Source: Cordylochernes scorpioides
Taxonomy: Eukaryota > Arthropoda > Arachnida > Pseudoscorpiones > Chernetidae
Length of the DNA: 64,000 nucleotides
Direction: 5' to 3'
NCBI GenBank assembly: GCA_030710605.1
Contig: CP092865.1
Span: 26,786,947-26,850,946, forward strand
Shown: positions 4,593 through 63,540 of the stretch, one piece after another
Position numbering within the stretch: the first letter of the stretch is position 1
Layout of the letters: every line of letters begins with the position of its first letter
Program-made: the position numbers and the translations under genes
Notes under the pieces: model-generated
What the model saw: the letters and a program-made list of their open reading frames with translations, nothing else
What the model was told of the DNA's origin: nothing
Databases searched by the model: none

Positions 4593-4856
4593 TAGAAGAC
4601 ACTATAGAAAAATAAAACGGAGATTGAAATGGAGTATCTTGTGCGAATTTTATTAGCAAGCTTTCGGACGTCCTTCTACAGGCTTTCTACGGTAACTAAA
4701 CAAAAGACGAGATTTAGTTATCGTAAAAAGCCTGTAGAAGGACACATGCGTCCGGAAGCTTTCTAATAAAATTCGCACAAGATACTCCTCTTCAATCTCC
4801 GTTTTATTTTTCTATTTCAACTCGAATAGTTTATTTTAGTAGTAGAAGACACTATA
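4593..4856. mobile_element. Family D foldback element with exact 14-bp target duplication
   Basis: The element occupies 4607-4842. Its arms start with AAAATAAAACGGAGATTGA and end with TCAATCTCCGTTTTATTTTT, and they include GAATTTTATTAG, AAGCTTTCGGACG and CCTTCTACAGGC with their complements. An exact 14-bp direct repeat, TAGAAGACACTATA, lies at 4593-4606 and 4843-4856, marking a genuine insertion. On the minus strand the left arm reads CUGUAGA, a short palindromic hairpin and GAAAGCUU, a degenerate hammerhead-like core. No protein is encoded. Target duplications of this size are usual for retroelements (established); assignment to the Penelope-like group is inference. Confidence 0.75.
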
Positions 4857-4869
4857 CGAGTTCACACGG

Positions 4870-5070
4870 TTCCATGGAAATATTCTAGGCTAGAGAATGG
4901 CTTGGAGCGCCCTAGGACATCTGGCAGTTATTGACGGGATAACGATGTCCCTAATTGTCACAAGGAACCATTTCTCAGACTACAGTGTCTTCTTGAGTGT
5001 CCTAGGAATAAATGGATCCTTCATGGATTTTACAAGAGAGAAATTCTTCCATTTATTTTACTGCGGTAAC
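4870..5070 (+). pseudogene. Possible Tc1/mariner-type transposase remnant
   Basis: Two reading frames give fragments whose order resembles the middle of Tc1-like transposases. One frame reads MAWSALGHLAVIDGITMS, comparable to the VMVW...G.L..IDG.M block. Further on, a second frame reads NKWILHGFYKRE, comparable to the W.FQ.DN.P.H block. The catalytic aspartate pair cannot be confirmed and frameshifts would be required. No terminal inverted repeats were seen nearby. Confidence 0.25.
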
Positions 5071-5214
5071 TCTATTTACTAATCAATCCATTATATATCC
5101 CATTTAAGATACAATTATTCATCCAATTGTACATTTCGTGGTATATTACTTGATGCTATATAGAGGGTAATTATCTGGAATATATCTATATAAATTATAG
5201 ACTCTAACGTTTTT

Positions 5215-5412
5215 CCAATATTGTAACATAGAAAATTAGGAAATACAAATTTCAGGATGACACAGCAATTTATTTAAGGCACAAGCTAAAAAAAAAAGAT
5301 AAAACACAAGAGAAGCAATCAGGGAAGTTTACGCAGAGTAATAAGATAAATGAAAATCAAAATAAAAAATAATCTGTTAATGAAATAGTAAATACGTACT
5401 TCACTACAATAT
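5215..5412 (+). repeat. Family E copy, about 200 bp
   Basis: Runs from ATTGTAACATAGAAAATTAGG through CAGGATGACACAGCAATTTA to CTACAATATTT. It aligns end to end with 40318-40512, sharing the internal GAGAAGCAAT and TTTACGCAGAGTAATAA blocks. The ends are weakly inverted (ATTGTAAC against ATTGTAG read from the other end), so a small TIR element is possible. Confidence 0.65.
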
Positions 5413-5414
5413 TT

Positions 5415-6376
5415 ATTCTTATAGAAAGTTTTTTGACATAAGCAACGTTCAGTCCCGTGGTTAGTTAGAATAGGCTTTTAATTTACATACCCGATCTTCT
5501 GCCCCTTTTTTTCTATATTTACATATACCTATTTTAAAATTATAGGGAACAGTGTTGAAGATTGACTGTAAAAACGCTATAATTTATTATATTTTTTCGA
5601 TAATAATAAAACTCTAGGATGCTCATAGCGAATATTAATCCCAGTATATTTTATTCACTTTTTTATATCTTCAAAAGGATCTTTTATATGACTGAAATTT
5701 CTTAATAAAATCTTGTTGTTTGTACATTAAAAAATTGCGAAAATGTAGAAGGAATTAAGTCAAATATAGAAAACATATTGTGAAAATTGAAAGAGATATT
5801 TAAATCTTTTGGAAATACTTTCTTTTTTATCATCAATTTGATATAGGATGCTAGGAAATCATAAGAAAACATTATCAAAAGCATTGTCCATTATATCTTC
5901 AAAAATCTTAATATATGCAACAAATTTCTTCGTGATAGGAGCTTTAATTTGACAGAAAGAAAGATTGAAACGCTTAGCAGTCATATCCTGATCAACCAAC
6001 TCAACACTACTGTTAGGAAAAATTATATATATTCGTGTAGAAGAGAAAGAAGGCAGATAATTACGAAGATCTTTTATTACATGAATGTATTTATAAACAA
6101 TAAGGAAGGACAAGAGAGATTAAAGAAATTAAACTAGATAAAATTATATATACACCAGCAGCTCACGTCTATCAGCAGCCGTTCTATCCAAGAACGGCTA
6201 GTCCAACACACAACCAATCTCACAAAGCCGCGATATATAACAGAGTATTACATTTTGAAATATCCTCGAATTGCCACTTTCAACAACAATCACTGTTACT
6301 ATGATCTTCTACGTGGAAATTTTCAGTTGCGGGTCAGGATATGTAATCTTGTTTGAAAGAATTGCATAGAAACTTT
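5415..6376. other. Region downstream of the coiled-coil gene
   Basis: No gene recognised. A small hairpin with a perfect 9-bp stem (AGCCGTTCT, loop ATCCA, AGAACGGCT) sits at 6177-6199. Short opposing ORFs at 5859-6113 and 5949-6137 match nothing I know. Confidence 0.5.
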
Positions 6377-6382
6377 TAAATT

Positions 6383-6388
6383 TTTATT
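6383..6388 (-). terminator. Polyadenylation signal for the coiled-coil gene
   Basis: The + strand reads TTTATT, which is AATAAA on the minus strand, about 40 bases downstream of the TAG stop. This is the canonical eukaryotic signal, correctly placed and oriented for a short 3' UTR. Confidence 0.5.
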
Positions 6389-14269: not shown

Positions 14270-14400
14270 TATACAATCTTCCAATATAACAGTAGAGCTC
14301 TGAAAAGTGGCATAGTAGATTAAATTGGCGAAACCTCTTGAAGGATTCGCTATTGATGAGCAAGAAGGCCTTCCTACAATATTTTCATAGCAGTAAGAAA
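14270..14400 (-). repeat. Family A fragment
   Basis: Has AGAGCTCTGAAAAGTGG, AGATTAAATTGGCGAAACC, GATTCGCTATTGATGAGCAA and CATAGCAGTAAG in family order; the central block is diverged. Confidence 0.65.
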
Positions 14401-14664
14401 AGCAAAAAGCTTGTTTTATTTGAAAAATAAAAAACAACTTGATAATTGTATTTCGTATATACAACTTTATATCTAACGCGATATACTTAAACAAATAATA
14501 GACAATCTGGAAGGGGGTTGTCACACCAAGTTACTTAGTTGAAAACCTCATTTACATAGAAAGAAAAAGTTGCATAAGGTTTTCTTCATAAGATGGGTGT
14601 CATCTTGTGTGTGTGGAAAGGAATATATTTGTAATTAAGAAAGACCAAATTGATTTCGTTTATT

Positions 14665-15299: not shown

Positions 15300-15605
15300 A
15301 TGTTTTTTAGATGTGTCAAGCGTATTTACGCAAGTTTGGCCTTAAATACCCATTTCTTGGTTTCTCAAGAAGCCTCTGAGACCAAAAATCTTTTTGATCG
15401 CAGTGGTACAGCCTACTCTACCCTGACGAGCGCCAACAGCGCAAAACGCGTTCGTGGATGGCTTTTCTTGATTTATCAATAAATTGGGTTGGCCAAATGT
15501 CAGGGAACAGGCTAAATCAATGTTTAGTTGATTTCTGGTCCACCAGATGGAGCTCTGCCTACTGAAAAGCACATGTGCTCCTGGTCAGAATATGCCTTTT
15601 TTATT
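15300..15605 (+). mobile_element. Family B2 element
   Basis: Near 15408-15440 it reads CUGACGA, stem GCGC/GCGC with loop CAACA, then AAAA where a hammerhead needs GAAA, then CGCGUUCGUGG. This is followed by CTTTTCTTGATTTATCAATA, AATTGGGTTGGCCAAAT, TGGTCCACCAGATGGAGC and the CTCCTGGTCAGAATATGCC terminus. Overlapping ORFs on both strands are by-products. Confidence 0.65.
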
Positions 15606-20856: not shown

Positions 20857-21320
20857 CGTTTAGTAAGGGCAGTAGAAATTGTTTATTTTCAAAAAAATCT
20901 TACGCCTTTAAAATAGTTTCGAATTTTGATAACAGATGGCGCGCTAGTGCATCATATTATAAATGTTTTAATAAATGAAACAATTTGATATTTGCGGAAG
21001 AGCGATTGCTCGAAGCATGTTATATATTTATAAATGTATGTAATTCTACTGTCCTAAAAGCCTATGGCCATAGTTCTTCTAAAATACCCATTTCAAGAGT
21101 CTATCAACAGTATCACTATAAAAGGAAGTTCCAAAAATGCAATATAACAGCGGTATGGTAGATTTAACTGGCGAAACCGCTGGGAGGGTTCACCACTGAT
21201 GACCCAAGCCCTCCCATTAATTTTTCCATTGCAGTAAGGGCAGTAGAAATTGTTTATTTTCAAAAAGAATCTTACGCCTTTAAAATAGTTTCGAATTTTG
21301 ATAACAGATAGCGCGCATTC
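20857..21320. repeat. Two family A copies, one with TIR-to-TIR core
   Basis: 20857-20960 is an outer arm (AAGGGCAGTAGAAATTG then TTTCGAATTTTGATAACAG). 21045-21320 runs from TTCTACTGTCCTAAAAGCC through GCGAAACCGCTGGGAGGG and CACCACTGATGACCCAAGCC to GCAGTAAGGGCAGTAGAAA, then a second outer arm nearly identical to the first. Confidence 0.7.
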
Positions 21321-21639
21321 GTATATATGTTTATAACAATATATATGATCTCTTATATATATAGTCTTTCACTATACTTAATCTGTCACACAATGAGAAG
21401 AAAGAGGAATATTTTCCGATAGCTTCTCACTTTACAAAAGGTAAAAATAAAATAATAAGCATATAACATATCCTTTAATGGTATAGTTTAATAATAACAT
21501 ATCCTTTAATGGTATAGTTTAATTACACACACAGCTTTATTTACGCAAAGTTGCGGGAGAAAAGTATTCATAGGCATTTCTCCTTTTTAAACAGGCTTTT
21601 TTAAAAATACATTTCGTTTATCACCCCAGTAAAACACTT

Positions 21640-21790
21640 TAATGATGAAGAATAAGCCACAACTCCAGTTTTGACAGATTCAGACAAACCTGTATACCAT
21701 GGTTTCGGGTAATAGCCCCCATCAGTACAGGGCGGCTTAGATTTCATAGCATCCAATAAGAGGAGTTATAAAATAGGTCAATTTACCAAA
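21640..21790 (-). mobile_element. Family F element with hammerhead-like motif
   Basis: Contains CCAGTTTTGACAGATTCAGA, the ribozyme-like block 21690-21730, GGGCGGCTTAGATTTCATAG, and GTCAATTTACCAAAAAGGTG. The same order recurs at 48345-48500. Confidence 0.6.
21690..21730 (-). ncRNA. Hammerhead-ribozyme-like motif with one core change
   Basis: Minus strand: stem I strand CUGUA, CUGAUGG (consensus CUGANGA, A9 changed to G), stem II GGG..CCC with loop CUAUUA, GAAA, stem III ACC-AU-GGU, cleavage triplet GUA, then UACAG, which pairs perfectly with CUGUA. All three helices form around the right core; the A9 change probably inactivates it. Confidence 0.55.
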
Positions 21791-22644: not shown

Positions 22645-22960
22645 ATCGTTAATCAAGAAAAAGACATCTCCTGATCATGCAACTAAAAGTTGCTGATGGC
22701 TTGCACCATCTGTCAAAATAAATATCAAATAATCGTTGATTTTAAATTATTACAGAATTGGCCAAATACCATTTCTTTATTAATCAAGAAAAGTTAACCA
22801 AATAAGAAAGGGTATTTAGCCAATTCTTGAAATTTTTCAAAATTAACCATTAGTTATTTATTCCGACTTTTAGTTGCAGGATCATGAGATGCCTTTTTTC
22901 TTAATTTATTCACCTGATCTCCAGTACAATTTCATTTTTATACTATTTTTCAATTCGTTA
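22645..22960. mobile_element. Family B, inverted-repeat form
   Basis: Left half AAAAAGACATCTCCTGATCA then ACTAAAAGTTGCTGATGGC; right half CTTTTAGTTGCAGGATCATG then AGATGCCTTTTTCTTAATTT. The centre has both orientations of the GGCCAAATACC block. The outer sequence CACCTGATCTCCAGTACAA continues as in 27225. Confidence 0.7.
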
Positions 22961-22969
22961 ATCGTTATG

Positions 22970-27224: not shown

Positions 27225-27625
27225 TTCAGTTGTTTTGAAAAATAGTATAAAAGTGAAATTATACTGGGATCAGGTGAATAAATTAAGTAAAAAGACATCT
27301 CCTGATCTTGCAACTAAAAGTTGCTGATGGCTTGCGCCATCTATCGGAATAAATATCAACTAATCGTCGATTTTTAATTATTCGAGAAATGGCCAAATAC
27401 CATTTCTTGTTTAATCTCGGAAGGCTAACCAGGTTTTGGTCGTTGAGGTACAGCTTGCACCACGCTGACGAGGGCCAACAAGAATGGGTATTTGGCCAAT
27501 TCTGGAATAATTAAAAAATCAACGATTAGTTGATATTTATTCCGATAGATGGCGCAGACAATCATCAACTTTTAGTTATACGATTAGGAGATGTTTTTTT
27601 TTCTTATTTTGTTTAAGTTTTATTC
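27225..27625. mobile_element. Family B, long inverted-repeat form
   Basis: Left outer part TATACTGGGATCAGGTGAAT, then AAAAAGACATCTCCTGATC, TGCGCCATCTATCGGAATAA and AATTATTCGAGAAATGGCC. The centre has ACCACGCTGACGAGGGCC, half of the hammerhead-like segment (CUGACGA) with its GAAA half lost. The right half is the complement, ending ATTAGGAGATG and TTATTCACGG. Confidence 0.7.
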
Positions 27626-28089
27626 ACGGCGCATCACAAAAGTGTTCTAAAATTAATATTTATAAAAGAGTACTTCATACCTATGCTAAGTAACCATCTG
27701 GTATAACATGGCTAAAGGTCTATGAACACACCAACAAATATATAATATGTAAGGAGAAACAGATTTTTTTCTAACAACTGAGAAACTCTTATGTAAAATT
27801 TATCATTTATAAATTTTGAGATATCGCGCGTTGTGTAGAGATATATATGCGCGCTCCAGAAAAAAAAAGAATTAATTTAATATTGAATTTAATATTAATG
27901 ATGAACAACGGTGTCACCAACTTAATCTACCCTACCTCTCTATTATTGTATTGGACTGTTTTGTTTGGATGCATTTTTAAAAGGGACAGGGGCGTTCAAT
28001 ATCACAAATTACAATATATAATAATATATTACAAGGCCTAACTGGCCTTGTTCTTATTGTTTGTGGAAGAGTATTGCTCGATGCAACTA

Positions 28090-28340
28090 TTTTAATGCAA
28101 TTCTACTGTCCTAAAAGCTTTTTCCATAGTTTGCTTAAATACCATTTCTGAGATTCCACCTTTCATTGTAGAATATAAAAGCAGAATGGTACAATACAGT
28201 ATTAGAGCTCTAAAGAAGCGGTATGCTAGATTAAATTGGCGAAACCGCGTTTTAATATTTTCATTTGTATTATATAATAATATTGTAACGTAGAAATTAG
28301 GAAAGACAAACTTCAGAATGACACGGCAATTTATTTAGGG
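28090..28340. repeat. Family A left part and family E fragment
   Basis: 28090-28255: TTCTACTGTCCTAAAAGC, ATTTCTGAGATTCCACC, TATTAGAGCTCTAAAG, GCGGTATGCTAGATTAAATT, GGCGAAACCGCG, then truncated. 28283-28340: GTAACGTAGAAATTAGGAA, family E start. Confidence 0.65.
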
Positions 28341-29450
28341 CAAAAAAACAACATAAAATTTATATAATGCTTAGAGAGGCAAGTTTGTAGGATAGGAACA
28401 TATAAATATAAAAGTTTATATTTTGTTTATAAAATAATAATAATTTCGCTATAATATAAAGAATGGAAAATGGAGATGTTCTAAAAAATAGGTCTCATAA
28501 TTCTCTTATAGAATCAAAAGAAAAATATCAATCGGAAAAAAACCCAAAAGGATTCCTGTATTCACCTTTGTGGCTTAATTTCTAGATAGACGCCATTATT
28601 GAAGCCTGGATTATATACTACTCCACGTTGGGAATACAAATGAAGAGAGAAATGGCTGCATCTCAGGTCACAGAATAATTCCCTGAAATTTCCTATCTAC
28701 CGCGAATATAGCAATATTATTTGAACTATTTGGGTATATCATACACTTTATATTTAGCAACTTTATTTAATATTGATAGGAATAAAAATTAACTTTTTGT
28801 ATCTCATAGTAAATATAATAAATTCTAATAGGCGCATCTTGGATCTATATGAAATTATTTATACGAAATTATAAGACTTCATCCTGGTTCTTTCCGAATG
28901 AATGTTTCCTCACCTTAAATTATATTAACAAAAATGTTATAATTATTATGATTATAAGATTAATTATTATTAATACTAGTAGTAGAAGTAGTAGTAGCAA
29001 TAGTTATGCTGGTTAATAACTAATTATATCATTATCATATAATTTTATCACTCCAATATAGGCAAATTATTGGACAAATTTGTATAGGCTTTGAATATAG
29101 CTCATCTATATATCTTCAGATACATAGTGTAACTTCTTAATGATTTATTCGGTAGTTTTTTTTATGGCGGAGAATATAGAAAAACATCTCTTTATCAATT
29201 CATTTAAATATTTAAAGCTATATATAGATATTCTTTTTTTCTATTTTGTGTTGTTGTTGCTTATTCCTCAGGTCGTTTAAACGATCTCCATTAGGTTCCC
29301 TTGTCTCAGCTTTTCTATTATAGTCCTGAGGTTTTCTCAGAGGTATTTTTTTGGAGGATTTGATACAAAATAATAGATGTTCAGGACTGGCTGGTTGTGA
29401 ATCGCATTTTTTTATTTTTTATTTCATGTTGATTATAGTATTAAATATAT
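28341..29450. other. AT-rich stretch without recognised gene
   Basis: Only an AGT-rich microsatellite (about 28976-29000) stands out. Confidence 0.55.
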
Positions 29451-29454
29451 TTTT

Positions 29455-29660
29455 AAAATAGAGCAATCCATATATAAATATTTAATTAAAAAGACATATA
29501 TTGAATCAAAATATCATTTATTTTACCAATATTTCAGTTGGTTGAACGCCAACCTTTATCAAGGTATTATAACACACATTAAACTGATATATTGGTAAAA
29601 TAAATGATATTTTAATCCAAAATAGGTCTTTTTATTTAAAGATTTAAATCTATATATAGA
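29455..29660. mobile_element. Family C, inverted-repeat form
   Basis: Left AATATCATTTATTTTACCAA, TATTTCAGTTGGTTGAACGCC, AACCTTTATCAAGG, then TATATTGGTAAAATAAATGA and the complementary end. One hammerhead-like half (minus: CUUGAUAAAGGUUGGCG then AACCAACUGAAAUA) is preserved. Confidence 0.65.
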
Positions 29661-30160
29661 TATTATTTTTTATATTTTTTATTTCTTTTTTGATTATAGT
29701 ATTAAATATTATTTTTGAGACATCATTATTTTTCTCATAAAAAAAAGAGTATATAAAAGTAAAAATCTGAGCTAAGCTATTCATGAAAAGCTATCAATTA
29801 ATGGTTAGGATAATGTTGAAACATTTGCGGTGGAAGAGAAAGTTTGGGATAAATTGAAGCCTTAAATATGTGGGGGGGAAGGAGGTTTTATTTAATCCCG
29901 TCAGAAGATAGACAGCAGAGCAATTTCCAGAGTCGTCTGCAGAATTTATTGAATGGGACTGAAGTTTTGAACTTTTGGAGACAACCTTCACATTTCTTAG
30001 ATATATATCTAGTTTGTTTTGTTGGCACAGTACCTTTAGAAATCTTCTACTGTTGTGTGAATAGCTGCCATTACAATATATTTACACAAATATTATCTAG
30101 ATTTTTAAATTAAATCATTGAAAAATATATTTAAAATTTAAAATTTCTATGATTATAAAA
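29661..30160. other. AT-rich stretch without recognised gene
   Basis: Opposing short ORFs at 29794-30113 show no known motif. Confidence 0.5.
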
Positions 30161-30162
30161 AT

Positions 30163-30405
30163 ATATTATAAAATAAATAAAGCTTCCAAGGCTAAGTTTC
30201 TTGTTCAAATCTTTTATTTTCAAACTTTCGGACTTGTCAGTCCTTCAACAGGAGTATCACGTTAATAAATTGATGATATATTTTTATATACAAATTATTA
30301 TTTATATATATATTTGAAGGACTGACAAGTCCGAAAGCTTGAAAATAAAAATTTGAACAAGAAACTTAACCCTGGAAGCTTTATTTATTTTATAATATTA
30401 TAAAT
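30163..30405. mobile_element. Family D inverted-repeat element, well preserved
   Basis: Arms TATTATAAAATAAATAAAGC, TTCCAAGGCTAAGTTTCTTG, TTCAAATC and CTTTCGGACTTGTCAGTCC, with near-exact complements on the right. Minus strand of the left arm: CUGUUGA, stem GGACU/AGUCC with loop GACA, GAAAG. That is a hammerhead-like order with A6 replaced by U. The centre is AT-rich. Confidence 0.7.
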
Positions 30406-30980
30406 CAGGGCAGAACGTTTATTTATAATAAAAATATATATTAAATTTGACCATTTGCCCATATTATCATCATCTTGCTTATTTTCATTCATTCTTGTAT
30501 CACTAAATATATATATTAATTGTAAGCTACAATTTTTTAATATATTACATTTTATAAAAACCTTAAATTAATTCAAATAAACAACACAGTATAGATTTTA
30601 CTGATATTAAAATAATATTGTTCTCATAATTTGATATAGAAATTGCGAAATATTTTATTTGTTTTTCTCGGAAAGAAAAAAAAGAGTTCATATGTATATA
30701 GGAATTTATAAAATAATTGATATGAAATTAAATTCACTTATTAATTTATATTTAATGAAATATTTGTTCTCATTAAAATATCTATATTACATTAAAATTG
30801 AAAATATTTTCCTTTTTTTTTCGTAAGATTATTTCTTTTACTGAAAAATGTATAATTATAATATCTCTCATATTGAAAAGTTTGTATTGGATCCGTGCTC
30901 TAATTTATATATATTCATTAAGATAGCCAATAATATATACAAACTAGTGATTTTATTCTTAATTGTTTATTGTATTGAAT

Positions 30981-35115: not shown

Positions 35116-35564
35116 CTCAACTATTTTTCAACATCTATTTCAGGATATTATTAGCTGTACACTCTACATTACATGGTTAAAATGTTTTTTTTTTTACCCA
35201 AAAATCTGTACAATAAATCAGTGTAGAGGACAATATTGGGGTATTGATTGGCCAACGATGAAAATAATGGGGAGAATTAATCATTTGATAGCTTAGCCTC
35301 TATTTAATAAACCCAGTTCATTTTAGAGGCAAACTTGTCTGGAGTTTAAAAGTGAGAGATCAGACGTTTGGGTGGGAGCCATTAATCTTCATCTCAGGAC
35401 TATTAAATCGATGTCAGGCTGTTTTCTGATTGGTCCACACGGTGATCCTCTCCCTGTTTGGATTCTCAGTTCTTCCTTCACTTCTTTGCTTCTGGTCATT
35501 TCTATCATTCTATATAAAGGTTTGGATATATATATTTCGACATGTATGATTCTTTTAAAATTCA

Positions 35565-35735
35565 AACAATTTTCTACTGCCCTTACTGCAATGAAAAATT
35601 AATGGGAGGGCCTTGCTCATCAGTGGTGAACCCTCCCAGCGGTTTCGCCAGTTTCATCTACCATAAAAGAATCGTACGCGTCTATAATAGTTTCGAATTC
35701 TCCTAACAGATGGCACGCTAATATATCATATTATA
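35565..35735 (+). repeat. Family A fragment with outer arm
   Basis: TTTTCTACTGCCCTTACTGC, GGGCCTTGCTCATCAGTGG, GAACCCTCCCAGCGGTTTCG, then AATAGTTTCGAATTCTCCTA and GATGGCACGC. Confidence 0.7.
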
Positions 35736-36089
35736 ATGTATATATATGTATGTATGTATGCTGGAACCAACGTCTAATTGGTCGAACAATTTTATTTAAA
35801 ATTTCTCTTATCATAACCAGATAAAAGGTAAGAAAAGTTCAATAATTCATTCAAAATTTGAAAGTTGGTTGTGTAACGTTATAAATGCAAATGTAAATTA
35901 TAGAGTTCCATTCAACATGCCTGATACAAATATCGGATTTGAGGAACCAAACTGTAGTATTATACAAAATATATATAAGATTGCTGGAGAATGTGTGCAG
36001 TATTCACGTACCATATGAGACACCTCTCACTTTAAATATACATCAAACAATGTATTTTTTATTGGGTGATTTAAAAAAATGTATTTTTT

Positions 36090-38145: not shown

Positions 38146-38276
38146 AAATCATTAAAAACCTATTGCCTCACAAGAGTATAGAATAAACAATGGACTAAAT
38201 GTATCAAACCAGTTTGATCTAATTTCAACAAAAGACAAATATATAAAATTCACAAAAAGCAATAACGCGCCATCTA

Positions 38277-38556
38277 TATATATAAAATAAAAGGATTTAA
38301 AAGCGCGAATGTTTCTTTTATACATAAAACGAACTTCTACTGTCCTTACTGCGATGAAAAAATATATTGGGAGGGCTTGGCTCATCAGTGGTGAACCCTC
38401 CCAGCGGTGGATTAAATTGGCGAAACCGCTGGGAGGGTTCACCACTGATGAGCCAAGCCCTCCCAATATATTTTTTCATCGCAGTAAGGACAGTAGAAGT
38501 TCGTTTTATGTATAAAAGAAACATTCGCGCTTTTAAATCCTTTTATTTTATATATA
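38277..38556. mobile_element. Near-perfect palindromic family A element, 132-bp arms
   Basis: Arms 38277-38408 and 38425-38556 are complementary with no difference I could find; the spacer is 16 bases (38409-38424). Each arm holds TCTACTGTCCTTACTGCGAT, TTGGGAGGGCTTGGCTCATC and GTGGTGAACCCTCCCAGCGG. Transcription would give a long hairpin. The identical ORFs on the two strands here are a by-product of the symmetry. Confidence 0.9.
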
Positions 38557-38564
38557 AAATTCAA

Positions 38565-42350: not shown

Positions 42351-42811
42351 AGAGGTAATGTGCAGTCCAATAGTTTTATTCCATTCCAAAATACAATATC
42401 TTACACACGACTGGGCACACTCACCCTATTTATTAAATTCCCCATAAAATGGTGGTTTCCTGCCTCTTGCTTTTATTACCATTTTTATTGTTTTATATTC
42501 CAGAGGGAAAAACAAAACGCCAAATATTCTGATTTATACTTTTGAAAAGTCCCGCTTATATTATATATATAGAGAAAAACTTTTAAACATTTAAATCTCT
42601 CGTTTTTTACGTGAAAATGAAGCGTTTCTTAAGTATGAAATGTAATGAGCATTTCTTTATTAAGCGAAAACGTATACTAGAACTATAGAACATGCTGTAC
42701 CTATACGACGAAACAAATATTGGATGTATTCACAGATATAACTAAACTTAAGAAATGGAAGCATTATAAAGGCATGTGTGTGTGAAAGCGTTTTTTTAAC
42801 ACAAAACAAAC

Positions 42812-43024
42812 GTCTACTGTCCTTACTGCGATGAAATAAATATATTAGGAGGGCTCTTGGCTCATCAGTGGTGAACCCTCCCAGCGGTTTTGCCAATTCA
42901 ATCTACCAGACCGCTTCTTAGAGCTCTAATACTTTATTGGACGATTCTGCTTATATACGCTGCAAAGTGGAATCTTAGAATAGTATTCAAGCAAACTATG
43001 AACAAGAGCTTTTAGGACAGCAGA
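42812..43024 (-). mobile_element. Family A full-length TIR form, about 213 bp
   Basis: Begins TCTACTGTCCTTACTGCG and ends GCTTTTAGGACAGCAGA, 11-bp imperfect inverted ends. Internal GGCTCTTGGCTCATCAGTGG, GAACCCTCCCAGCGGTTTTG, GACCGCTTCTTAGAGCTCTA, TTGGACGATTCTGCTTATAT. Fits a small non-autonomous DNA element (MITE) or hairpin retroelement. No transposase. Confidence 0.65.
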
Positions 43025-43339
43025 CTTACATATACTTATATATGTTAGAAGTTAGTTATTAGATGTCTCCAGTTGGCTTTCCCAAAATAAAGAAAAACAA
43101 ATCCTGCAGAAATTTTATCTGAGGTTTAGAAAGTTCTGGTAGAGTAAAGGGATGCCGCATTTATCCAAGAGAACTTTCTCATGGTGAAGGAGCCTCCCTT
43201 CCAGAGAAAAAATGTAAATATTTTATCACCAAAATTTGTGAATAATATCATTTATCTTTGTTTAATTTCTCATTAATATTTGTAAAAATTAACTAAGTGC
43301 CAATAAATATATTTTGAATTGTCAAATTGTCTATCCAAT

Positions 43340-45104: not shown

Positions 45105-46430
45105 GTCCTAAAGGCTTTCTGAAAAATACCTGATAGAAAGGAATCATTGTGAATTATAAATCAACTCGCCATTGTTGTTTCTTAGTAACGTTTGACTCAG
45201 TGTTGATATTGTCTGAAGGACAGTCTCCGTCAATAGACTTGGAAACTTTGATCTAGCAGGTACAGTGAATCGGAGTGTACCAATTCATTTTTAAGCCGGC
45301 GGCAATAAAAGAAATAATGAATCCCTTATAAATCCCCAAAATGTCCACCAAATGTAAGTCCTAAAGGTGAAATTAAATACGAGAACAAGCTCATATTCTT
45401 TCTATTAAGAGATTTAATGAAAACAAGTAAAAGAGCGATGACTAATTATAAACGTGAATTTAAACGATCGAACAACGAAAAATCAAAAATATTGGAATAT
45501 CATCTAATGAGTTAGCGCAATTTATCTAAAGTTCAATTGAATTTCTTATATACTCAAAATGATTCAAATATGCTTTAGCTTGATTTATCGAGAATAATCC
45601 TTTCCTTGAAGTCTCTAAGTCCGGCTACATCTTGGTGAGTCGTTGACAAAGGCCAACAGTCTGAAAAGTGGTACGTGATTAGCTTGTCTATATTAATAAA
45701 GAAAATGTATATTAAAAATATCCTGAAATAGAAGACTCAAGATTCAGTTGACTCAGATAGAAGCCAATGTAGAATTACATGTCTGTAGATGTTCTTTCAT
45801 CTCATACTATCACCCTGATATATCTATATTATATGTAATTTTATATCGGTTTTATTTCCGCGAGAAAAACATCACAAGGGTATCAAATACAATCTTCCAA
45901 TTTTCCCAGTTAGGAAATTGATTTCAAATTCCCAGCTCGAAGGTGACGTGTCTTAGGGAAAATGACAATCCACATGATATACACAATTCTTCTTTACTTT
46001 TAGAAAAATGGAAGAAAAGTGAAATTATACTGGGATCAGTGGTCATAAGCATTTCCAGTTACAAAATCAAGAGATATATTTTTCTTAATCCTTCACCTAG
46101 TTTAAGATATTATTGTGGATCTTGTGATGAAACCCCAGGTATACTTTAGGATAACATGGCGATTCTTTGGACCCTTCCAACATGATACATAGAGAGACCA
46201 TTTGGTTATATTTTATATAACCTTACGTTAGAGTTAAAAATGTTGTTATAATATATCTTTCAGTGTCTTCATTTTTGCTGAGTTTATTGGTTTGAATCCT
46301 TTTTTTCAGCATTTATTTTCGCATTCCTTAACATATAGTATTGAGGTCGGTTTGTAGACTCTCTTACAAATATCTTTGAGTTGAGTTTCTTCAACCATAT
46401 TAATCGTGAATATATCTTTATGCACAGAAA
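45105..46430. other. Unassigned stretch with repeat scraps
   Basis: 45640-45700 carries a family B ribozyme-like trace (GGCCAACAGTCTGAAAAGTG then GTACGTGATTAGC). 46015-46055 matches the outer end of family B (GAAATTATACTGGGATCAG). No gene. Confidence 0.4.
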
Positions 46431-46431
46431 A

Positions 46432-46830
46432 TGAAAGGATTTAAGCACAAATGTTTCTTTTATTCACAATACAAATTTACACTGTCCCCACTGCGATGAA
46501 AAATATATTGGGAGGTCCCGGCTCATCAGTGGTGAACCCTTCAAGCGGCACCGCCAATTTAATCCACCAGACCGCTTCTTTTAGAGCTTTAATACTGTAT
46601 TGGACGATTCTGCTTATATACTCAGAACTGAAGGGTGGAATCTCAGAAATGGTTTTCAAGAAAACTATGGACATAAGCTTATAGGACAGTAAATTTACAC
46701 ATAAATATTTGCATCGAGCAATGCTTTTCCGCAAACAGTGAGGACATTGGAAATTTGCATTGTGTATAAAATAAACATTCGTGCTTAAATCCTTTATTTT
46801 TATATGTAGAGATGGCGCGTTATTGCTTAG
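46432..46830. mobile_element. Family A with outer inverted arms
   Basis: Outer arms AAAGGATTTAAGCACAAATG / CATTCGTGCTTAAATCCTTT flank a core with ACTGTCCCCACTGCGATGAA, GTCCCGGCTCATCAGTGGTG and GACCGCTTCTTTTAGAGCTT and ending AAGCTTATAGGACAGTAAA. The 128-codon minus-strand ORF is a by-product. Confidence 0.7.
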
Positions 46831-46834
46831 TGTT

Positions 46835-48340
46835 AATATCCTTATATCTACTTTTTCAACCATTTAATTGTACCTTTATATTGTAACACACACGAGCACT
46901 AAACTATTACCTTTTAAAATGAAATTAGAAGGGCCCTATCGATCACTTAGGTAAACGCTACAATTAATTTAGGAGAAATACACTAAACTGGAAGGACAAC
47001 ATTTAATAAATGAACACAAAGCATTTTAATAGATAAGGTTTGTAAAATAGGAATAATAGTAGATAATTTCATTACAGAGGTTCTCTGTTTATTAATGGGA
47101 AGTTAGTAAGCGGGTATTTATTAAATTAGATACTATAAATGTGATAAGCCTTGACAAATTTAATTTTCTATTGCGCCCCATCTCTCTCTATAATTGATTA
47201 GGCCTAGTTCTCTGTTGTATAAACAAAATGTAGATTTGGAGGCAGGTGGAGAGAACAACAAACATTAGAACTTTGTTGTTCAAATGTTATAAATATTAAT
47301 TTCATTACGTGTATTATATTGTAGCGTAGATATCAGTCTTGGAATATCTTAAGATATGAGAGTATTTATTGATGACGTCAGTACGACTAGTCGACAATTA
47401 TCAAACAAGAACAACTATCTACAGCTAGAGCATATTGAACAAGCAAACTAAGGACCATGTATGATGATTTCCCTAATTCATAGTAATAATCTGTGTTGAA
47501 TGTTTTCATTTAAAATTACAAAATGTTTTCTCACAATGAGTTTATTTTTATTTTGAAACGGTATCTTTCAAGCGATAATCGGTCTCCAACGGACTTAATA
47601 AAAACATCGAATATATCTTACAAGAAATATTTACAAATACAAACGTGCGTAGCGTGGATATTTACAACTGTAATTTTAAAATTGATATGTAATTTAACAA
47701 TGTTTAATTTTAAATGTTTTTCACAATTTTATCATGAATATTTTCATTAAATAATTAAATAATAAAATATAAATTATTTCTTCGCCACAATATAGACACA
47801 GAGTAAAAGACTTAGTTATTTATAGATTATATATATGGACAGTGAATATTCGTTATGTACATATTATATAGACAGAGATATTTTAGCGTTATGCTTATTA
47901 TAGTTACTGTTAAACTCTTTGTTAAGTTTATATTATGTTAATATATATATAGAAAACTCAATCTATAATAACTTTAAATTTAGTTTGGGATAAATAATCA
48001 AGTTTTATTTTTCCCTAATATTTCGATGCAATATTCTTCTGTCCAACTTGCTAATGTATTCCAAAATCAGTCCTCTTTCTTAATTACGCATAAGAACGAT
48101 CCACTTGTTCATCATATATTGAAAGTTAGAGGGAAAAAAACGTTTTCAATATGCAAGAGGAAAAAGAAGTTATTTTTCTAATTTGTCACTATGCACCCTG
48201 ATGACTGTTTGCCAACAGAATGCCACATACCCATCCACCATTGTATTTTTCTACCTAGACAGTGAAGTGTGCATTAAAGGTTTATTGCCTTCACTTGTTC
48301 ATCATTCTAGTAAAAACCTTTACAAGTGATGATAAAGAAA
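46835..48340. other. AT-rich stretch without recognised gene
   Basis: 47755-47800 shares TAAATTATTTCTTCGCCACAAT with the right arm of the 18401-18560 repeat. ORF 47523-47750 unrecognised. Confidence 0.45.
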
Positions 48341-53045: not shown

Positions 53046-53619
53046 GAGATAACCATGTGTGAACAAAATTGTCTCGGTCTCCTTAAAAAAAAAGAAACTG
53101 GTAACATCAAACACTTTCACTTTCTCAAGTTTTGTCCATGAGTGTATATTATAGCTTAGGTTCCTGGAGCACAAAACGCCAACTACCCGGATAAAAAAAA
53201 ACGCTATTTACGTTTAATAATAATAATACAAATGGTATATACACGGAAACTTAATTAAGACAATTAGTTTCATACACGGAGCTTTATAAGTTGAAAAAAA
53301 AAGTAAGTGAATAAATAAATTAAAGCTCGGGTATAATACATGCATACATTGGCCTTTATTAAGACCTTACGTCCTATGCTAACATTGTTTGACCGAAGAA
53401 TGGGGCTTTAAAAAATTCGAAAAGGGACTTGTATACAGTATTTGCATCCTTCTGAAGCGAACGAAAAAAAATAAACAAAAGAAACTTAGGCAATGGAAGG
53501 AACAATATTAAAGTAATGTTGGGTCTCGTTACTTTCTTGTATATAAAATATATTTTCATAAAGTCCCCCCCAAACTAAGATCAATTTATTAATATTATTT
53601 ATTTATATCAAAATATAAA

Positions 53620-54000
53620 GGTCGCCTTTCCAGTTAAAATAGACACTGAAACTAGGCGCCATCTAGTGGCCGTCTCTGCAAACTAACGGATTAGGTCGGT
53701 GACAAAGCCACCAACACTAACTTGGTCAAACTGTGAGTAGTCAGCCCAACTGGAGACTATGGTTTCGGGCTAACAGCCATCGTCAGTCCAGGGCGGTCTT
53801 AAATTCGTGAGATCCACAAGAGCGATGACGAGGGGCATTAGCCCTAAACCATAGTTTTCAGGTGGACGCTTCTCAGTTTGCTAAAGCTGGTGTTGTGGCT
53901 TTGTCAGCGACCAGAGGCCGCTAGTTTGCGGCGATTATCAACGGGAGAGAGGCGACCTTTATTTCTGTAGATCATCATCCCGGGGTTAAAATATCCATCC
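53620..54000. mobile_element. Family F, inverted-repeat form with two ribozyme-like segments
   Basis: Left half: GTCGCCTTTCCAGTTAAAAT, GGCGCCATCTAGTGGCCGTC, AGCCCAACTGGAGACTATGG. Right half: GATGACGAGGGGCATTAGCC, CTAAACCATAGTTTTCAGG, AAGCTGGTGTTGTGGCTTTG, GGGAGAGAGGCGACCTTTA. The left ribozyme-like segment (minus strand) is near intact; the right one (plus strand) has UAAA in place of GAAA. Confidence 0.7.
53750..53791 (-). ncRNA. Hammerhead ribozyme motif with complete core
   Basis: Minus strand order: CUGGA (stem I), CUGACGA, stem II UGGCU-GUU-AGCCC (4 pairs; the pair next to the core is a U-C mismatch), GAAA, stem III AC-CAUA-GU, C17, then UCCAG, which pairs with CUGGA over five bases. 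Cleavage is predicted after C at 53755 (triplet GUC). Every conserved core base is present. Type I arrangement with a 2-bp stem III, as known for Penelope-like elements. Activity is untested. Confidence 0.65.
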
Positions 54001-58175: not shown

Positions 58176-58179
58176 TATT

Positions 58180-58689: not shown

Positions 58690-58910
58690 GAACATTTTTA
58701 GATAGCAGAGCGCCATCTAGTGGAACAGAAATCAACTAGACGTTGATTTAACTCTTGTTCCATGATATTTGGCCAACCAAATTTATTGATAAATCAAGAA
58801 ATTCAATCACATACGCGGTTCGTGCTGTTGGCTCTTGTCAGTGTGGTGCAGACTGTACTTCTACGATTAAAATTTGGTCCTAGAAGCTTCCTTTTTCAAA
58901 GTTATTTGCA
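58690..58910 (+). mobile_element. Family B2 element with degenerate hammerhead-like core
   Basis: AGAGCGCCATCTAGTGGAAC, GTTGATTTAACTCTTGTTCC, ATTTGGCCAACCAAATTTAT, TTGATAAATCAAGAAATTC. Minus strand at about 58810-58845: CUGACAA, hairpin with CAACAGC, GAAC in place of GAAA, CGCGUA. Confidence 0.65.
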
Positions 58911-61281: not shown

Positions 61282-61569
61282 TTGTTGTTGTTTCCCGTTG
61301 GCTGGCTCAAATCTCATGTACATATGTAAATACCTAATCTTTATTTTCTTCCTTACGCCTCAAATCCGGTATAATCTCTTTAATTGTGTTCATGAGACCA
61401 ATTAAAGTAAATTGTGATTCCATATTATAATTCATTATTTTACCACGACTGTAATTTAAATACTCATGTATACCAACCTCAAGCAAATGGTCAATTCTCT
61501 ATATCAATCAGCAAGTAATAGTTTTATAACTCTAATTCTAAAATCAACAGAAATCATTTTTATATAATA

Positions 61570-61815
61570 TATATATATTAAGAAAAAGGCATCTCCTTAT
61601 CGTGCAACTGAAAGTTGCTGATGGCTTGCGCCTACTATCGTAATAAATATCAACTATTCTCGTTGATTTTTAATTATTCCAGAATTGGCCAAATACCCAT
61701 TCTTGATTAATCAAGAAAAGCTAACCCACGGACGCGTTTCGGGCTGTTGGCCCTCATCAGCGTATCATTGCACGATAAGGAGATGCCTTTTTCTTAATTT
61801 ATGCACTTTATCCCA
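61570..61815 (+). mobile_element. Family B element with intact hammerhead-like segment
   Basis: AAAAAGGCATCTCCTTATCG, ACTGAAAGTTGCTGATGGC, GAATTGGCCAAATACCCATT, TTGATTAATCAAGAAAAGC, the ribozyme-like block (61727-61764), then GCACGATAAGGAGATGCC, complementary to the start. The best-preserved family B copy here. Confidence 0.75.
61727..61764 (-). ncRNA. Hammerhead ribozyme motif with complete core
   Basis: Minus strand: UACG (stem I), CUGAUGA, stem II GGGC-CAACA-GCCC (4 perfect pairs), GAAA, stem III AC-GC-GU, C17, then CGUG, which pairs with UACG (one G-U). Cleavage predicted after C at 61731 (triplet GUC). The stem III hexamer ACGCGU is self-complementary, so two copies could pair with each other. 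All core bases are present; activity untested. Confidence 0.65.
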
Positions 61816-61893
61816 GTACAATATCACATTTGTACTATTTTTTCATAATATATATAATCAAATTTGATTGAAGTTTTGATTTCGTAATTAGAT

Positions 61894-62247
61894 TTGAAAG
61901 GCCGAAGTTTAAATATCAAAACGGTCTCTATAAAAGAATTCTTAAGGATAAAACGTTTTAAAAATTGCCTGGAACGACCACAAAATAAATTGTTATGGGT
62001 AAACGCAAATGATGGCCTAGGAGTTCTTTTTGTGATCGATGATTTCCGGGAAACAAATGATGGGTGGTTTTCTAAGACTGGGTTGAGAATAAAACCTTTT
62101 TTTAGTTGGTTTTTTAGTTTTGGAGAATATCAACCAATAGGGACTCACTCTGTGATAACTGATGGACGTCGTTATTGGTGGATTGGATGTTTACCACCGC
62201 TCAATCATCTGATTGGCTCGTTGCGGGGTTATACTGAATTGGTTTAG
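61894..62247 (+). CDS. Unrecognised 117-codon ORF, doubtful
   Basis: Open from ATG to TAG. The second half has a less biased composition, with GTHSVITDGRRYWWIGCLPP. I recognise no domain, signal peptide or repeat, and several chance ORFs of this length exist in the window. Could be a piece of a decayed element. Confidence 0.15.
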   Translation: MKGRSLNIKTVSIKEFLRIKRFKNCLERPQNKLLWVNANDGLGVLFVIDDFRETNDGWFSKTGLRIKPFFSWFFSFGEYQPIGTHSVITDGRRYWWIGCLPPLNHLIGSLRGYTELV

Positions 62248-62249
62248 CC

Positions 62250-63175
62250 AATAAGAAACGACTACACTTACAAGAGTTATCAATTGACGATGGGAATGTT
62301 ATCGTTATTTATTTTATGAATCTCTTTGTGTATGTTATTGAAAATATATCAATTTATGACATATATATGTTATATAAAAATTATATTCTATTCTAAAATT
62401 ATAATTCCCAGATCACTTCATATGTAGGTAGACATATAGTATGTTTGTTGAAGGAAACAGAGATTATGAATAATTTTGTATATTTACTCTCTATACAACT
62501 TTTGTCTAAAACCTCTGGCGAGAGCTGAAAATTGTTTATAAAAAGAAATGTATTGCAGAGTTTGTATATATATTGTAGTTTAATCTTTCAAATTTACTTT
62601 TAAAAGTATTAAAATGATACTCATGTGATGGGCGTTCATGTTTTTAGCAGAAAAGGTTCTTGCCCGAAAGCTGCTTTCTCTTTTAATAAGCAATAAAAAT
62701 GTAAGCAACACCCACTCCTTTCTAAAAAATGTTCTCATAAAAGGTAACTAATAATACCCTTATTATAAAAACAAGTATGATGCTGTAAACCAAGTATTTA
62801 AAAGTATTGGGGTGTTTGCTCAGTGAACTTCCGCTTAACGACAAGTTCTTATTAACGACGGGCTCATTTAACTAACGCGAACAATATTCAAGTAGAATAT
62901 TGAGACATTTTAAAAATAACGCGAAGAGTTCGATAAAATAATTCAATCAAAATTTTTACTCTAATCTAATTTCATACAATAATGTCTTTTAATTCAATAT
63001 AAAATGATCAAATTTTCCAAATAAATTCTATCTCTCTCTTTCTCGATATACCCTGAAATATATCCTAATTAGATAATATATATCCTTAAAAGGAATGTAT
63101 CATCATAGCCGTTACAAAATATGAAATTTGTGTTGCGGTAATAAAAAGATAGAGGTTGCCTGGCCGGCATTCATA
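62250..63175. other. AT-rich stretch without recognised gene
   Basis: 62825-62885 (CTTCCGCTTAACGACAAG, TATTAACGACGGGCTC) looks like a transposon-end scrap; otherwise nothing. Confidence 0.45.
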
Positions 63176-63179
63176 GTTC

Positions 63180-63540
63180 TTCAAATTAAAGATATTTTGG
63201 TCAGTAAATATTTTTTTATTATCTCGACGTTTCGACAAAAATCTTTTGTCCTCGTCAGGCGCGCAAACAAAAATTGACACATTCTATCTTTACAATCCCC
63301 ATGATAAAAATGACAGAGCGTCACGTTAGAAGAGAAATACAACAATAGAATATATGTGTGAGGGCTGATGTATGTAGTTTATTATTTCTACAGAAAGGAC
63401 CGAAGTTGGTTAATGTGCAACAACATCTATTTTATATAAGCTGTTAGAAAAAGTATTGAATAAACTGGGAAGGCGTTAAAAATTATTTTTTGTCGAAACG
63501 TCGAAGTAATAAAAGGATTTACTGTCCGAAGTATCTTTAA
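63180..63540. mobile_element. Inverted pair of hammerhead-like arms around a family K unit
   Basis: Left arm (minus): CTGACGAGGACAAAAGATTT, TTGTCGAAACGTCGAGATAA, ATTTACTGACC, AAATATCTTTAATTTG. Right arm (plus): TTTTTTGTCGAAACGTCGAA, GTAATAAAAGGATTTACTGT, CCGAAGTATCTTTAATTTTA. Between them 63300-63475 is one family K unit (CAACAATAGAATATATGTGT, ATGTATGTAGTTTATTATTT, AAGCTGTTAGAAAAAGTATT). Confidence 0.65.
63226..63258 (-). ncRNA. Hammerhead-like motif without stem I
   Basis: CUGACGA, stem GACAAAA/UUUUGUC (7 pairs after one unpaired G), GAAA, palindromic ACGU, then C. Core bases are all present, but flanks do not form stem I beyond one pair. Confidence 0.45.

What the first reader, a model, noticed from the sequence alone, without database searches (positions are those of the whole stretch)
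4593..63540. Four or more unrelated short repeat families share one architecture: hammerhead-like core plus palindromic stem III
Families B/B2, C, D, F and the 43.4/63.2 kb elements carry (C/U)UGANNA, a hairpin of different sequence in each, GAAA, and then a palindrome or near palindrome: ACGCGU, AGCU, ACGU, ACCAUGGU. The hairpin sequences differ but the order and the palindromes do not. This suggests a swarm of non-coding, ribozyme-bearing retroelements mobilised by one machinery, like PLEs or retrozymes.
Basis: partly seen in the sequence, partly recalled or inferred. Interest (0 to 1): 0.75.

Follow-up and report, generated by a model that had tools for sequence, protein, structure and literature searches.

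The report
Animal retroelement swarm with rearranged hammerhead ribozyme
This stretch of animal-like DNA is full of short non-coding jumping elements that insert like Penelope retrotransposons and carry self-cutting hammerhead RNA motifs, and the largest family appears to carry a hammerhead whose three parts are in a scrambled order previously reported from environmental RNA.

Summary
Hammerhead cores are real in the ACGCGU and ACCAUGGU families: four descriptor hits score 31.8 or more, against 0.002 per shuffled window. A third family (palindrome AUAU, core UUGAUAA) is a weaker candidate. The AGCU and ACGU families do not fit a hammerhead core. Five probed families give 15 outward head-to-head pairs and 1 inward; 10 of 19 loci have significant target-site duplications of 9-20 bp, and in 7 of those 10 only one end carries a 24-48 nt tail. 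This is the published signature of Penelope-like pLTR inserts. The best copy scores 20.2; 0 of 4000 shuffled windows give an SGC hit that high. Against it: no copy here is intact, covariation of stems I-III is not above shuffles, no RT gene was seen in 30 of 82 frames scanned, and the host genome could not be searched.

The parts
42847..42914 (-). Type-SGC (non-circularly permuted) hammerhead candidate, best copy: GCGGU-C|UGGUA .. UUGGC-AAAA-CCGC .. GGGAGGG-UU-CACCA-CUGAUGA-GCCAA-GAG-CCCUCC; one core change (G12 to A), fifth pair of stem I open
   Evidence: Score 20.2; 0 of 4000 shuffled windows reach it for order SGC, one hit of any order does; flanking helix 6 WC + 1 GU of 7
21150..21215 (+). 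Type-SGC hammerhead candidate, second copy: GAAA and CUGAUGA intact, flanking helix 7 of 7, stem II broken at its first and fifth pairs
42791..43043 (-). Permuted-ribozyme family (FAM1), long copy with a TATA box upstream of the ribozyme
   Evidence: Self-BLAST and alignment
46390..46863 (.). FAM1 head-to-head insert: long copy 46428-46746 (sense minus) and short copy 46736-46840 (sense plus), 9-bp TSD TTCAACCAT, extensions at both ends
38239..38563 (.). FAM1 head-to-head insert with 132-nt arms 100% complementary, 16-nt centre, 14-bp TSD ATATATAAAATTCA, 24-nt tail at the left end only
35544..35748 (.). FAM1 head-to-head pair without significant TSD; by eye, the minus-sense copy starts within 1 nt of the predicted SGC cleavage site (A|UGGUAG)
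1333..1507 (.). FAM1 head-to-head insert with 13-bp TSD TTACTAAATATAT, 34-nt tail at the right end only
20991..21347 (+). FAM1 long copy
3376..3627 (-). FAM1 long copy; pair 2 of the flanking helix changed on both sides (GAGAAGG/CCCUCUC)
28049..28248 (+). FAM1 copy cut off after the GAAA block
14275..14432 (+). FAM1 copy with the second pair of stem I changed on both sides (UAGU/GCUA)
61726..61767 (-). Type I minimal hammerhead, palindrome ACGCGU, H17 = C, stem II GGGC/GCCC
   Evidence: Score 35.2; Rfam HH9 16.9 bits, below cut-off
61564..61856 (.). ACGCGU-family (FAM2) head-to-head insert, 12-bp low-complexity TSD, 42-nt tail at the right end only
15417..15458 (+). Type I minimal hammerhead of subfamily 2b, stem II GCGC/GCGC (compensatory to GGGC/GCCC); G12 changed to A, first pair of stem I open
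   Evidence: Score 31.8
58806..58848 (-). Decayed type I hammerhead of subfamily 2b with stem I CACA/UGUG (CACG/CGUG in the 8753 copy)
   Evidence: Score 23.2
22646..22963 (.). FAM2 head-to-head insert, 9-bp TSD TCGTTAATC, 48-nt tail at the right end only
27233..27613 (.). FAM2 head-to-head insert, no significant TSD
53750..53791 (-). Type I minimal hammerhead, imperfect palindrome ACCAUAGU, stem I CUGGA/UCCAG
   Evidence: Score 33.4
53600..53965 (.). ACCAUGGU-family (FAM5) head-to-head pair, no significant TSD
21690..21731 (-). Type I minimal hammerhead, palindrome ACCAUGGU, stem I CCUGUA/UACAGG, A9 changed to G
   Evidence: Score 36.0
29429..29709 (.). FAM3 (AUAU palindrome, UUGAUAA core, weaker hammerhead candidate) head-to-head insert with 20-bp TSD, extensions at both ends
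4593..4856 (.). AGCU-family head-to-head insert, 14-bp TSD TAGAAGACACTATA, 27-nt tail at the right end only; core not accepted as a hammerhead
30155..30439 (.). AGCU-family head-to-head insert, 12-bp AT-rich TSD, 29-nt tail at the right end only
63169..63557 (.). ACGU-family inverted pair around a 180-bp repeat that recurs at 43766-44001; no significant TSD; hammerhead not established

Best explanation
The window holds several families of short (about 200-350 bp), apparently non-coding, Penelope-type retroelements: solo pLTRs or non-autonomous derivatives. An RNA with a self-cleaving motif is reverse-transcribed from its 3' region into both strands of a staggered target cut. This leaves a TSD, two copies joined head to head and truncated independently at their 5' ends, and a tail at whichever end started from the outer RT start. 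At least two families carry a minimal type I (CGS) hammerhead whose palindromic stem III can close only between two RNAs or tandem units. [quoted passage not shown] it needs no dimer. Shown here by sequence: motifs, helices, inverted pairs, TSDs, tails. Inferred: cleavage, the role of the ribozyme, and supply of RT by a Penelope element elsewhere in the genome.
For: Type I cores against 1000 shuffles. Paired changes between related copies: FAM2 stem II (61760 versus 15423) and stem I (8753 versus 58841), the 53786 versus 21725 copies in stem I. SGC: the only hit at 15 or more among the six block orders in the window (that scan needs separate arms and so cannot see the palindromic type I cores); 0 of 4000 shuffled windows have an SGC hit as good; the majority consensus scores 22.2 with no core mismatch; the flanking helix, not used in the search, has 4-7 of 7 Watson-Crick pairs in 9 of 9 copies that hold the block, at the best of a few offsets. 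The same program called 57 of 76 motif instances in viral contigs as order GSC (type II, as recalled for phages), 0 as SGC, and 19 not at all. Insertion: 15 outward versus 1 inward pair; TSDs in 10 of 19 loci at mismatched-flank p below 0.05; one-sided tail in 7 of these 10. Literature signature of PLEs: PMC3846280 (passages) and PMC11167929 (parts 1 and 2 of 4).
Against: None of the 10 FAM1 copies aligned has an intact SGC ribozyme; in the majority consensus stem I has 4 pairs, the fifth being A-C (5 of 8 rows unpaired there). The covariation test on SGC stems I-III was not above shuffles (1 pair with a change on both sides, reached by 344 of 500; paired cells 82.2% against 82.0%). Rfam reports nothing up to E 5 at the best SGC copy. 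No RT or GIY-YIG frame in 30 of 82 scanned. 9 of 19 loci lack a significant TSD; 29472 and 46428 have extensions at both ends, and 36657 shows 4 and 0 nt (its probe already holds the tail). Several probes come from the loci they pair. The host genome could not be searched.
Confidence: 0.8

Rival explanations
1. The inverted pairs are MITEs or foldback DNA transposons moved by a transposase, and the hammerhead-like cores are passengers or chance.
For: Several loci are nearly perfect palindromes; other palindromes in the window without a recognised core (18402-18560, 36000-36137, 43572-43689) look like ordinary MITEs by eye. 9 of 19 loci have no significant TSD.
Against: Arm lengths differ between copies of one family (FAM1: 20, 66 and 132 nt), TSDs vary from 9 to 20 bp, one end carries a tail that the other lacks in 7 of 10 TSD loci, and type I cores exceed shuffles.
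Confidence: 0.08
2. They are metazoan non-LTR retrozymes (small circRNA retroelements with type I hammerheads).
For: Size, low GC, no evident ORF, type I hammerheads, as described in PMC7229834 (parts 1-3 of 6).
Against: That paper describes retrozymes in tandem repeats; here copies are dispersed and head to head, only two same-strand neighbour pairs were seen (one FAM1, one FAM3), and 0 of 17 core positions checked lie in a tandem array.
Confidence: 0.1
3. FAM1 is not a permuted hammerhead but another structured RNA whose hairpin loop happens to contain CUGAUGAGCC.
For: The strongest element is a simple hairpin GGGAGGG..CCCUCCC; covariation in stems I-III is not significant here; no intact copy; the S-to-G linker is longer than the typical three nucleotides.
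Against: All three hammerhead blocks are present in the majority consensus, with stems of 5, 5 and 4 pairs at the required positions and the fourth helix where the published SGC fold puts it.
Confidence: 0.13

Closest known systems
Type-SGC hammerhead ribozyme / HRIMA-1 (Eckert et al. 2023, PMC10085705; outline, part 2 of 8 of the text, sections 13 and 15, part 1 of 2 of the discussion, and passages seen)
   Same: Block order S-G-C, stems I-III, conserved CUGAnGA and GAAA, short S-to-G linker, helix joining the far sides of stems I and II, short distance (1 nt here, 0-44 there) from stem III to that helix
   Different: That paper reports no such RNA in genomes of known organisms (its one genomic candidate is a bacterial GCS); here it is a dispersed genomic repeat in animal-like DNA. 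S-to-G linker about 7 nt instead of typically 3; stem I UGGU/ACCA
Minimal type I hammerheads of Penelope-like elements (Cervera & de la Pena 2014; Lunse et al. 2017; neither held, seen only as cited in PMC7761336 section 8 and PMC7229834)
   Same: Type I order, tiny stem III, dispersed copies, expected to act as dimers
   Different: Here in short elements in which no ORF was found
Penelope pLTR inserts of Adineta vaga (PMC3846280; passages seen)
   Same: Head-to-head inverted pLTRs, optional 31-bp tail on one of them, 8-10 bp TSDs, TATA box in the pLTR
   Different: No RT-GIY-YIG ORF found in this window; TSDs 9-20 bp; the word hammerhead does not occur in that paper's main text
Poseidon of Anolis (PAc; PMC11167929, parts 1-2 of 4 read)
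   Same: Hammerhead near the RT start sites; two adjacent RT starts explain the tail; both target strands cut and extended
   Different: PAc hammerhead overlaps the start of an ORF; none seen here
Metazoan non-LTR retrozymes (PMC7229834, parts 1-3 of 6 read)
   Same: Short, AT-rich, non-coding, type I hammerhead
   Different: Tandem arrays there; dispersed head-to-head copies here

Membership tests
Penelope-like element (pLTR insert) | Head-to-head inverted copies with 3' ends outward | tested here: met
   15 outward pairs, 1 inward, among 52 family 3' ends; the 4 AGCU pairs restate local palindromes
Penelope-like element (pLTR insert) | Short, variable TSD | tested here: met
   10 of 19 loci, 9-20 bp; 9 of 19 not significant
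Penelope-like element (pLTR insert) | Optional 30-40 bp tail at one of the inverted ends | tested here: met
   7 of 10 TSD loci: 24-48 nt at one end and 0 at the other; 29472 and 46428 have both; 36657 shows 4 and 0 nt by coordinates
Penelope-like element (pLTR insert) | RT with GIY-YIG endonuclease ORF | tested here: inconclusive
   No such domain in 30 of 82 open frames of 70 aa or more; not expected in non-autonomous copies; genome not searchable
Type I minimal hammerhead | CUGANGA, stem II, GAAA, palindromic stem III, NUH, stem I | tested here: met
   FAM2 and the ACCAUGGU copies; weaker for FAM3; not met for AGCU and ACGU elements (by eye)
Type I minimal hammerhead | Self-cleavage | not testable with these tools
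   Needs in vitro transcription
Type-SGC hammerhead | Blocks in the order S, G, C with stems I-III | tested here: met
   Best copy 20.2, 0 of 4000 shuffled windows for SGC; consensus 22.2 with all core letters; stem I 4 pairs in the consensus
Type-SGC hammerhead | Helix joining the far sides of stems I and II | tested here: met
   4-7 of 7 Watson-Crick pairs in 9 of 9 copies with the block, best of a few offsets
Type-SGC hammerhead | Significant covariation | tested here: inconclusive
   Not above shuffles for stems I-III on 10 copies; single double changes in stem I (14275) and in the flanking helix (3376, 14275)
Type-SGC hammerhead | Self-cleavage | not testable with these tools
   Needs in vitro transcription
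Type II (GSC) hammerhead | Cleavage block between GAAA and CUGANGA | tested here: not met
   16 nt between GGCGAAACC and ACTGATGAGCC in FAM1; 76 instances in viral contigs have 22-34, the search having allowed 8-34; the six-order scan gives no GSC hit here
Metazoan retrozyme | Tandem repeats of the element | tested here: not met
   0 of 17 family core positions lie in or within 40 bp of a TRF array
TIR DNA transposon / MITE | Fixed TIRs and fixed TSD length | tested here: not met
   Arm lengths and TSD lengths vary

The most novel reading that the evidence does not exclude
FAM1 is a non-circularly permuted (type-SGC) hammerhead fixed in an animal genome as a mobile Penelope-type element: a genomic, DNA-encoded home for a fold so far reported from metatranscriptomes, in a genome that uses two hammerhead permutations side by side. 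Because its stem III is not palindromic, it would cut as a monomer, unlike the type I families beside it. The head-to-head and tandem rearrangements of Penelope-type insertion would be a natural way to reorder the three blocks.
Probability: 0.65. Interest if true: 0.85.

Novelty: new variant of a known kind. Interest (0 to 1): 0.72.

Why it matters
Dispersed minimal hammerheads in Penelope-like elements are known. I found no report of a non-circular hammerhead in a genomic retroelement: 'type-SGC' with 'hammerhead' returned one paper; a wider search from 2023 matched 29 papers, of which I saw 20 titles and abstract starts; a search with arthropod and spider terms matched 57, of which I saw 20. 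The one paper says none of its RNAs were found in genomes of known organisms apart from a bacterial GCS candidate (passages). The library holds only open-licence papers. If true, the permuted fold becomes a multi-copy genomic lineage whose cleavage, covariation and origin can be tested, and it would separate two modes of ribozyme use in Penelope-type elements: cutting as dimers and cutting as monomers.

Tried and rejected
Rfam at gathering thresholds finds two tRNAs only; the permissive scan gives several microRNA-model matches at palindromes. FAM1 was first judged to have no hammerhead; a type II reading failed because 16 nt cannot hold both the stem III and the stem I hairpins. The AGCU and ACGU families were tried as hammerheads by eye and not accepted. 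Self-priming of one cDNA as the sole source of the head-to-head pairs was considered: it should give equal ends, which one-sided tails contradict, although the 38.3-kb insert has identical arms. Enrichment of 5' ends at the cleavage site is suggestive only and was not tested: by eye, 2 of about 16 FAM1 copy starts lie near it (the 35544 copy, and the right copy at 38277 within 1-3 nt). In one search my coordinates put the 8753 and 45079 rows out of register; both were read again. Exact patterns from FAM1 and FAM2 gave nothing in viral contigs or prokaryote contigs; a looser pattern gave 69 viral contigs, used only as a control. Papers not held. The listings led to the papers cited; passages of PMC8490949 were seen but carry no claim here.

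Full report
What the window is. It is AT-rich DNA (26-37% GC in 2-kb bins) with two tRNA-Gly genes, a CCDC92-domain open frame at 6432-7637 minus and many repeats (95 repeated segments, tandem arrays included). I take it to be metazoan from these features; the species is not known to me and the host genome could not be searched.

The reported cores. A descriptor for a type I hammerhead with palindromic stem III (CUGANGA, stem II, GAAA, palindrome from the last A, NUH, stem I) finds four hits at 31.8 or above: 21725 minus (36.0), 61760 minus (35.2), 53786 minus (33.4), 15423 plus (31.8). In 1000 dinucleotide shuffles in 4-kb blocks, 2 shuffles had one such hit and the highest shuffled score was 32.8. 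The four fall in two families: ACGCGU (FAM2/2b), and ACCAUGGU (FAM5 and the 21.7/37.3-kb copies, which by eye share the 5' flank GCCGCCCTG, or close to it, and the core). Lower in the list the window also exceeds the shuffles (7 against a mean of 0.43 at 24; 21 against 8.8, maximum 19, at 18). Some of these are decayed copies of the same families (58841, 53825, 2131); others, such as 29119 minus at 28.0, 30270 plus and 12946 minus, were not examined. Rfam's HH9 model matches 61710-61775 at 16.9 bits, E 0.12 in a 261-base scan, far below its cut-off.

Paired changes. Related copies differ on both sides of a pair: FAM2 stem II GGGC/GCCC (61760) and GCGC/GCGC (15423); FAM2 stem I CACG/CGUG (8753) and CACA/UGUG (58841); stem I CUGGA/UCCAG (53786) and CUGUA/UACAG (21725). 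In FAM3, stem I is UACC/GGUA in 29562 and 36631 and CACC/GGUG in 44039, but broken in 48680 and 2131, and stem II pairs only with a bulge or not at all. FAM3's core UUGAUAA has both C3 and G8 changed in a way that keeps them complementary, but its best scan score is 20.8, which is not above chance on its own. I therefore call FAM3 a weaker candidate. The AGCU elements read CUGUUGA-A-GGAC..GUCC-GAAAGCUU and the ACGU elements have an extra base before stem II and no stem I; I do not count these as hammerheads.

How the elements insert. Self-comparison within 700 bp finds 36 inverted pairs, against 2-7 in five shuffles. Probes taken from the window's own 3' ends of five families give 52 ends: 15 pairs with 3' ends outward, 1 inward pair between two separate elements, and 2 same-strand neighbours. 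Several probes come from the loci they then pair, and the 4 AGCU pairs simply restate palindromes. Direct repeats at the outer borders of 19 loci were compared with 342 mismatched flank pairs: 10 pass p 0.05: 1333/1495 (13 bp), 4593/4843 (14), 22646/22955 (9), 25379/25629 (9, weakest), 29429/29690 (20, 15 in the narrower window), 30155/30428 (12), 36643/36861 (10), 38239/38550 (14), 46390/46855 (9), 61564/61845 (12, low complexity). About one would be expected by chance. In 7 of these 10 the arm lies next to the TSD at one end (0 nt) and 24-48 nt away at the other; 29472 (23 and 40 nt) and 46428 (29 and 54 nt) have extensions at both ends; 36657 has 4 and 0 nt, its probe already including the tail. 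This matches the typical Penelope structure in Adineta (adjacent inverted pLTR, 9-bp TSD, 31-bp tail at one of the inverted pLTRs, most often head-to-head; PMC3846280, passages) and the biochemistry of the Anolis element (both target strands cut and extended; two adjacent internal RT starts that bound the tail; PMC11167929). Variable arms and TSDs argue against TIR transposons; the lack of cores in tandem arrays (0 of 17 positions) argues against retrozymes.

The permuted hammerhead. The largest family (FAM1; 10 copies aligned) has the majority consensus AGCGGTATGGTAGATTAAATTGGCGAAACCGCTGGGAGGGTTCACCACTGATGAGCCAGGCCCTCCCA. Read as hammerhead blocks it is S (GCGGU-A|UGGUA), G (UUGGC-GAAA-CCGC), C (CACCA-CUGAUGA-GCCAG): stem III GCGGU/ACCGC (5 pairs), stem II UUGGC/GCCAG or GCCAA (5 pairs, the last U-G or U-A), stem I UGGU/ACCA (4 pairs; a fifth, G-C, in 3 of 8 rows). 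The order S-G-C is not a circular permutation of the classical one. Eckert et al. 2023 describe this order as type SGC, with an S-to-G linker of typically three nucleotides and an extra helix joining the far sides of stems I and II (section 13). In FAM1 that helix is GGGAGGG/CCCUCCC, flanking block C and 1 nt after stem III; it was not part of my search.

How strong this is. A scan of all six block orders, which needs three separate pairs of arms and so cannot see palindromic type I cores, gives one hit at 15 or more in the window: order SGC, 42868-42909 minus, score 20.2, one core mismatch. In 4000 shuffled windows no SGC hit reached 20.2 (maximum 19.6), one hit of any order did (maximum 21.4), and 1 of 57 shuffled SGC hits of 15 or more had a flanking helix scoring 9 or more, against 13.6 for the real hit. 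The majority consensus scores 22.2 with no core mismatch. As a positive control, 76 motif instances in 69 viral contigs (GGCGAAACC..ACTGANGAGCC) were called GSC in 57 and unassigned in 19, never SGC. The flanking helix has 7, 7, 7, 6 (+1 GU), 6, 6, 5, 5 and 4 (+1 GU) of 7 Watson-Crick pairs in the nine copies that have the block, at the best of a few offsets. Individual double changes occur in stem I (14275: UAGU/GCUA) and in the flanking helix (3376 pair 2, 14275 pair 3), and the fifth pair of stem II is U-A, U-G or C-G in different copies. Against it: the formal covariation test on stems I-III over 10 copies is at the shuffled level (1 pair with a double change, reached by 344 of 500 shuffles), Rfam reports nothing at the best copy, and none of the 10 copies is intact. 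The S-to-G linker is about 7 nt. Conservation along FAM1 in 12-nt steps is high in TTCACCACTGAT (0.88) but higher in a 5' segment TGTCCTAAAAGC (0.92), so it does not single out the ribozyme.

How it most likely works. Inferred: the element is transcribed from a TATA promoter (a TATA motif lies 33-48 nt upstream of the S block in 4 of 4 long copies checked); the ribozyme frees a 3' portion; a Penelope-type RT supplied in trans starts near the 3' end at both strands of a staggered cut, giving head-to-head copies. FAM1 can form its stem III within one molecule, so it would not need dimers; the type I families would. By eye, the minus-sense copy at 35544 starts within 1 nt of the predicted FAM1 cut and the right copy at 38277 within about 3 nt; with some 16 copies this is only suggestive.

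Novelty. Minimal type I hammerheads dispersed in animals and in Penelope pLTRs are known (PMC7761336 section 8; PMC7229834, parts 1-3 of 6; the original 2014 and 2017 papers were not held). Type SGC is known from metatranscriptomes; [quoted passage not shown] I found no later report (1 paper; 20 of 29 listed; 20 of 57 listed), of which I saw titles and abstract starts. The library holds only open-licence papers, so absence there is not proof.

Noticed in passing
59435-59489 (+) and 33763-33808 (+): Two matches to Rfam type-P1 twister ribozyme (43.0 and 36.3 bits, below the 67.2 cut-off; E 3.9e-06 and 3.2e-04), each at the start of a repeat of about 370 bp that is 84% identical between the two places. 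PMC7761336 mentions truncated twisters at the 5' end of RTE retrotransposons as work in preparation (passage); no ORF was checked here.
   Followed up: partly
3' regions and tails of FAM1, FAM2, FAM2b and FAM5 (e.g. 38253-38276, 58690-58749, 40690-40775): A box AGATGGCGC (or close to it) recurs near the 3' end of otherwise different families (alignments, by eye); it could be a common recognition site of the mobilising protein.
   Followed up: no
46428-46746 and 20991-21347: In 2 of 4 FAM1 long copies checked ACTGTCC in the conserved 5' part can pair with GGACAGT or a near variant in the 3' part, around the ribozyme; 42791 and 3376 lack one side of the exact match.
   Followed up: partly
18402-18560, 36000-36137, 43572-43689: Palindromic elements without a recognised ribozyme core; they look like ordinary MITEs and make a useful contrast.
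   Followed up: no
16599-17643 and 56656-57297: Large tandem arrays of 32-bp and 60-bp units.
   Followed up: no
29562, 36631, 44039 and 48680: Cores UUGAUAA in which C3 and G8 of the hammerhead are both replaced (U3/A8); stem II is imperfect in all four as aligned.
   Followed up: partly
29119 (-), 30270 (+), 12946 (-): Type I descriptor hits of 28.0, 25.0 and 24.1 outside the families described; not examined.
   Followed up: no
6432-7637 (-): 402-aa open frame with a CCDC92 domain (Pfam 40.5 bits), the only match above a Pfam cut-off among 30 frames scanned.
   Followed up: no
63169-63557 and 43766-44001: A 180-bp repeat sits between two inverted ACGU-type copies at 63 kb and recurs near the ACGU-type core at 43.4 kb, as if captured between two ends.
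   Followed up: no
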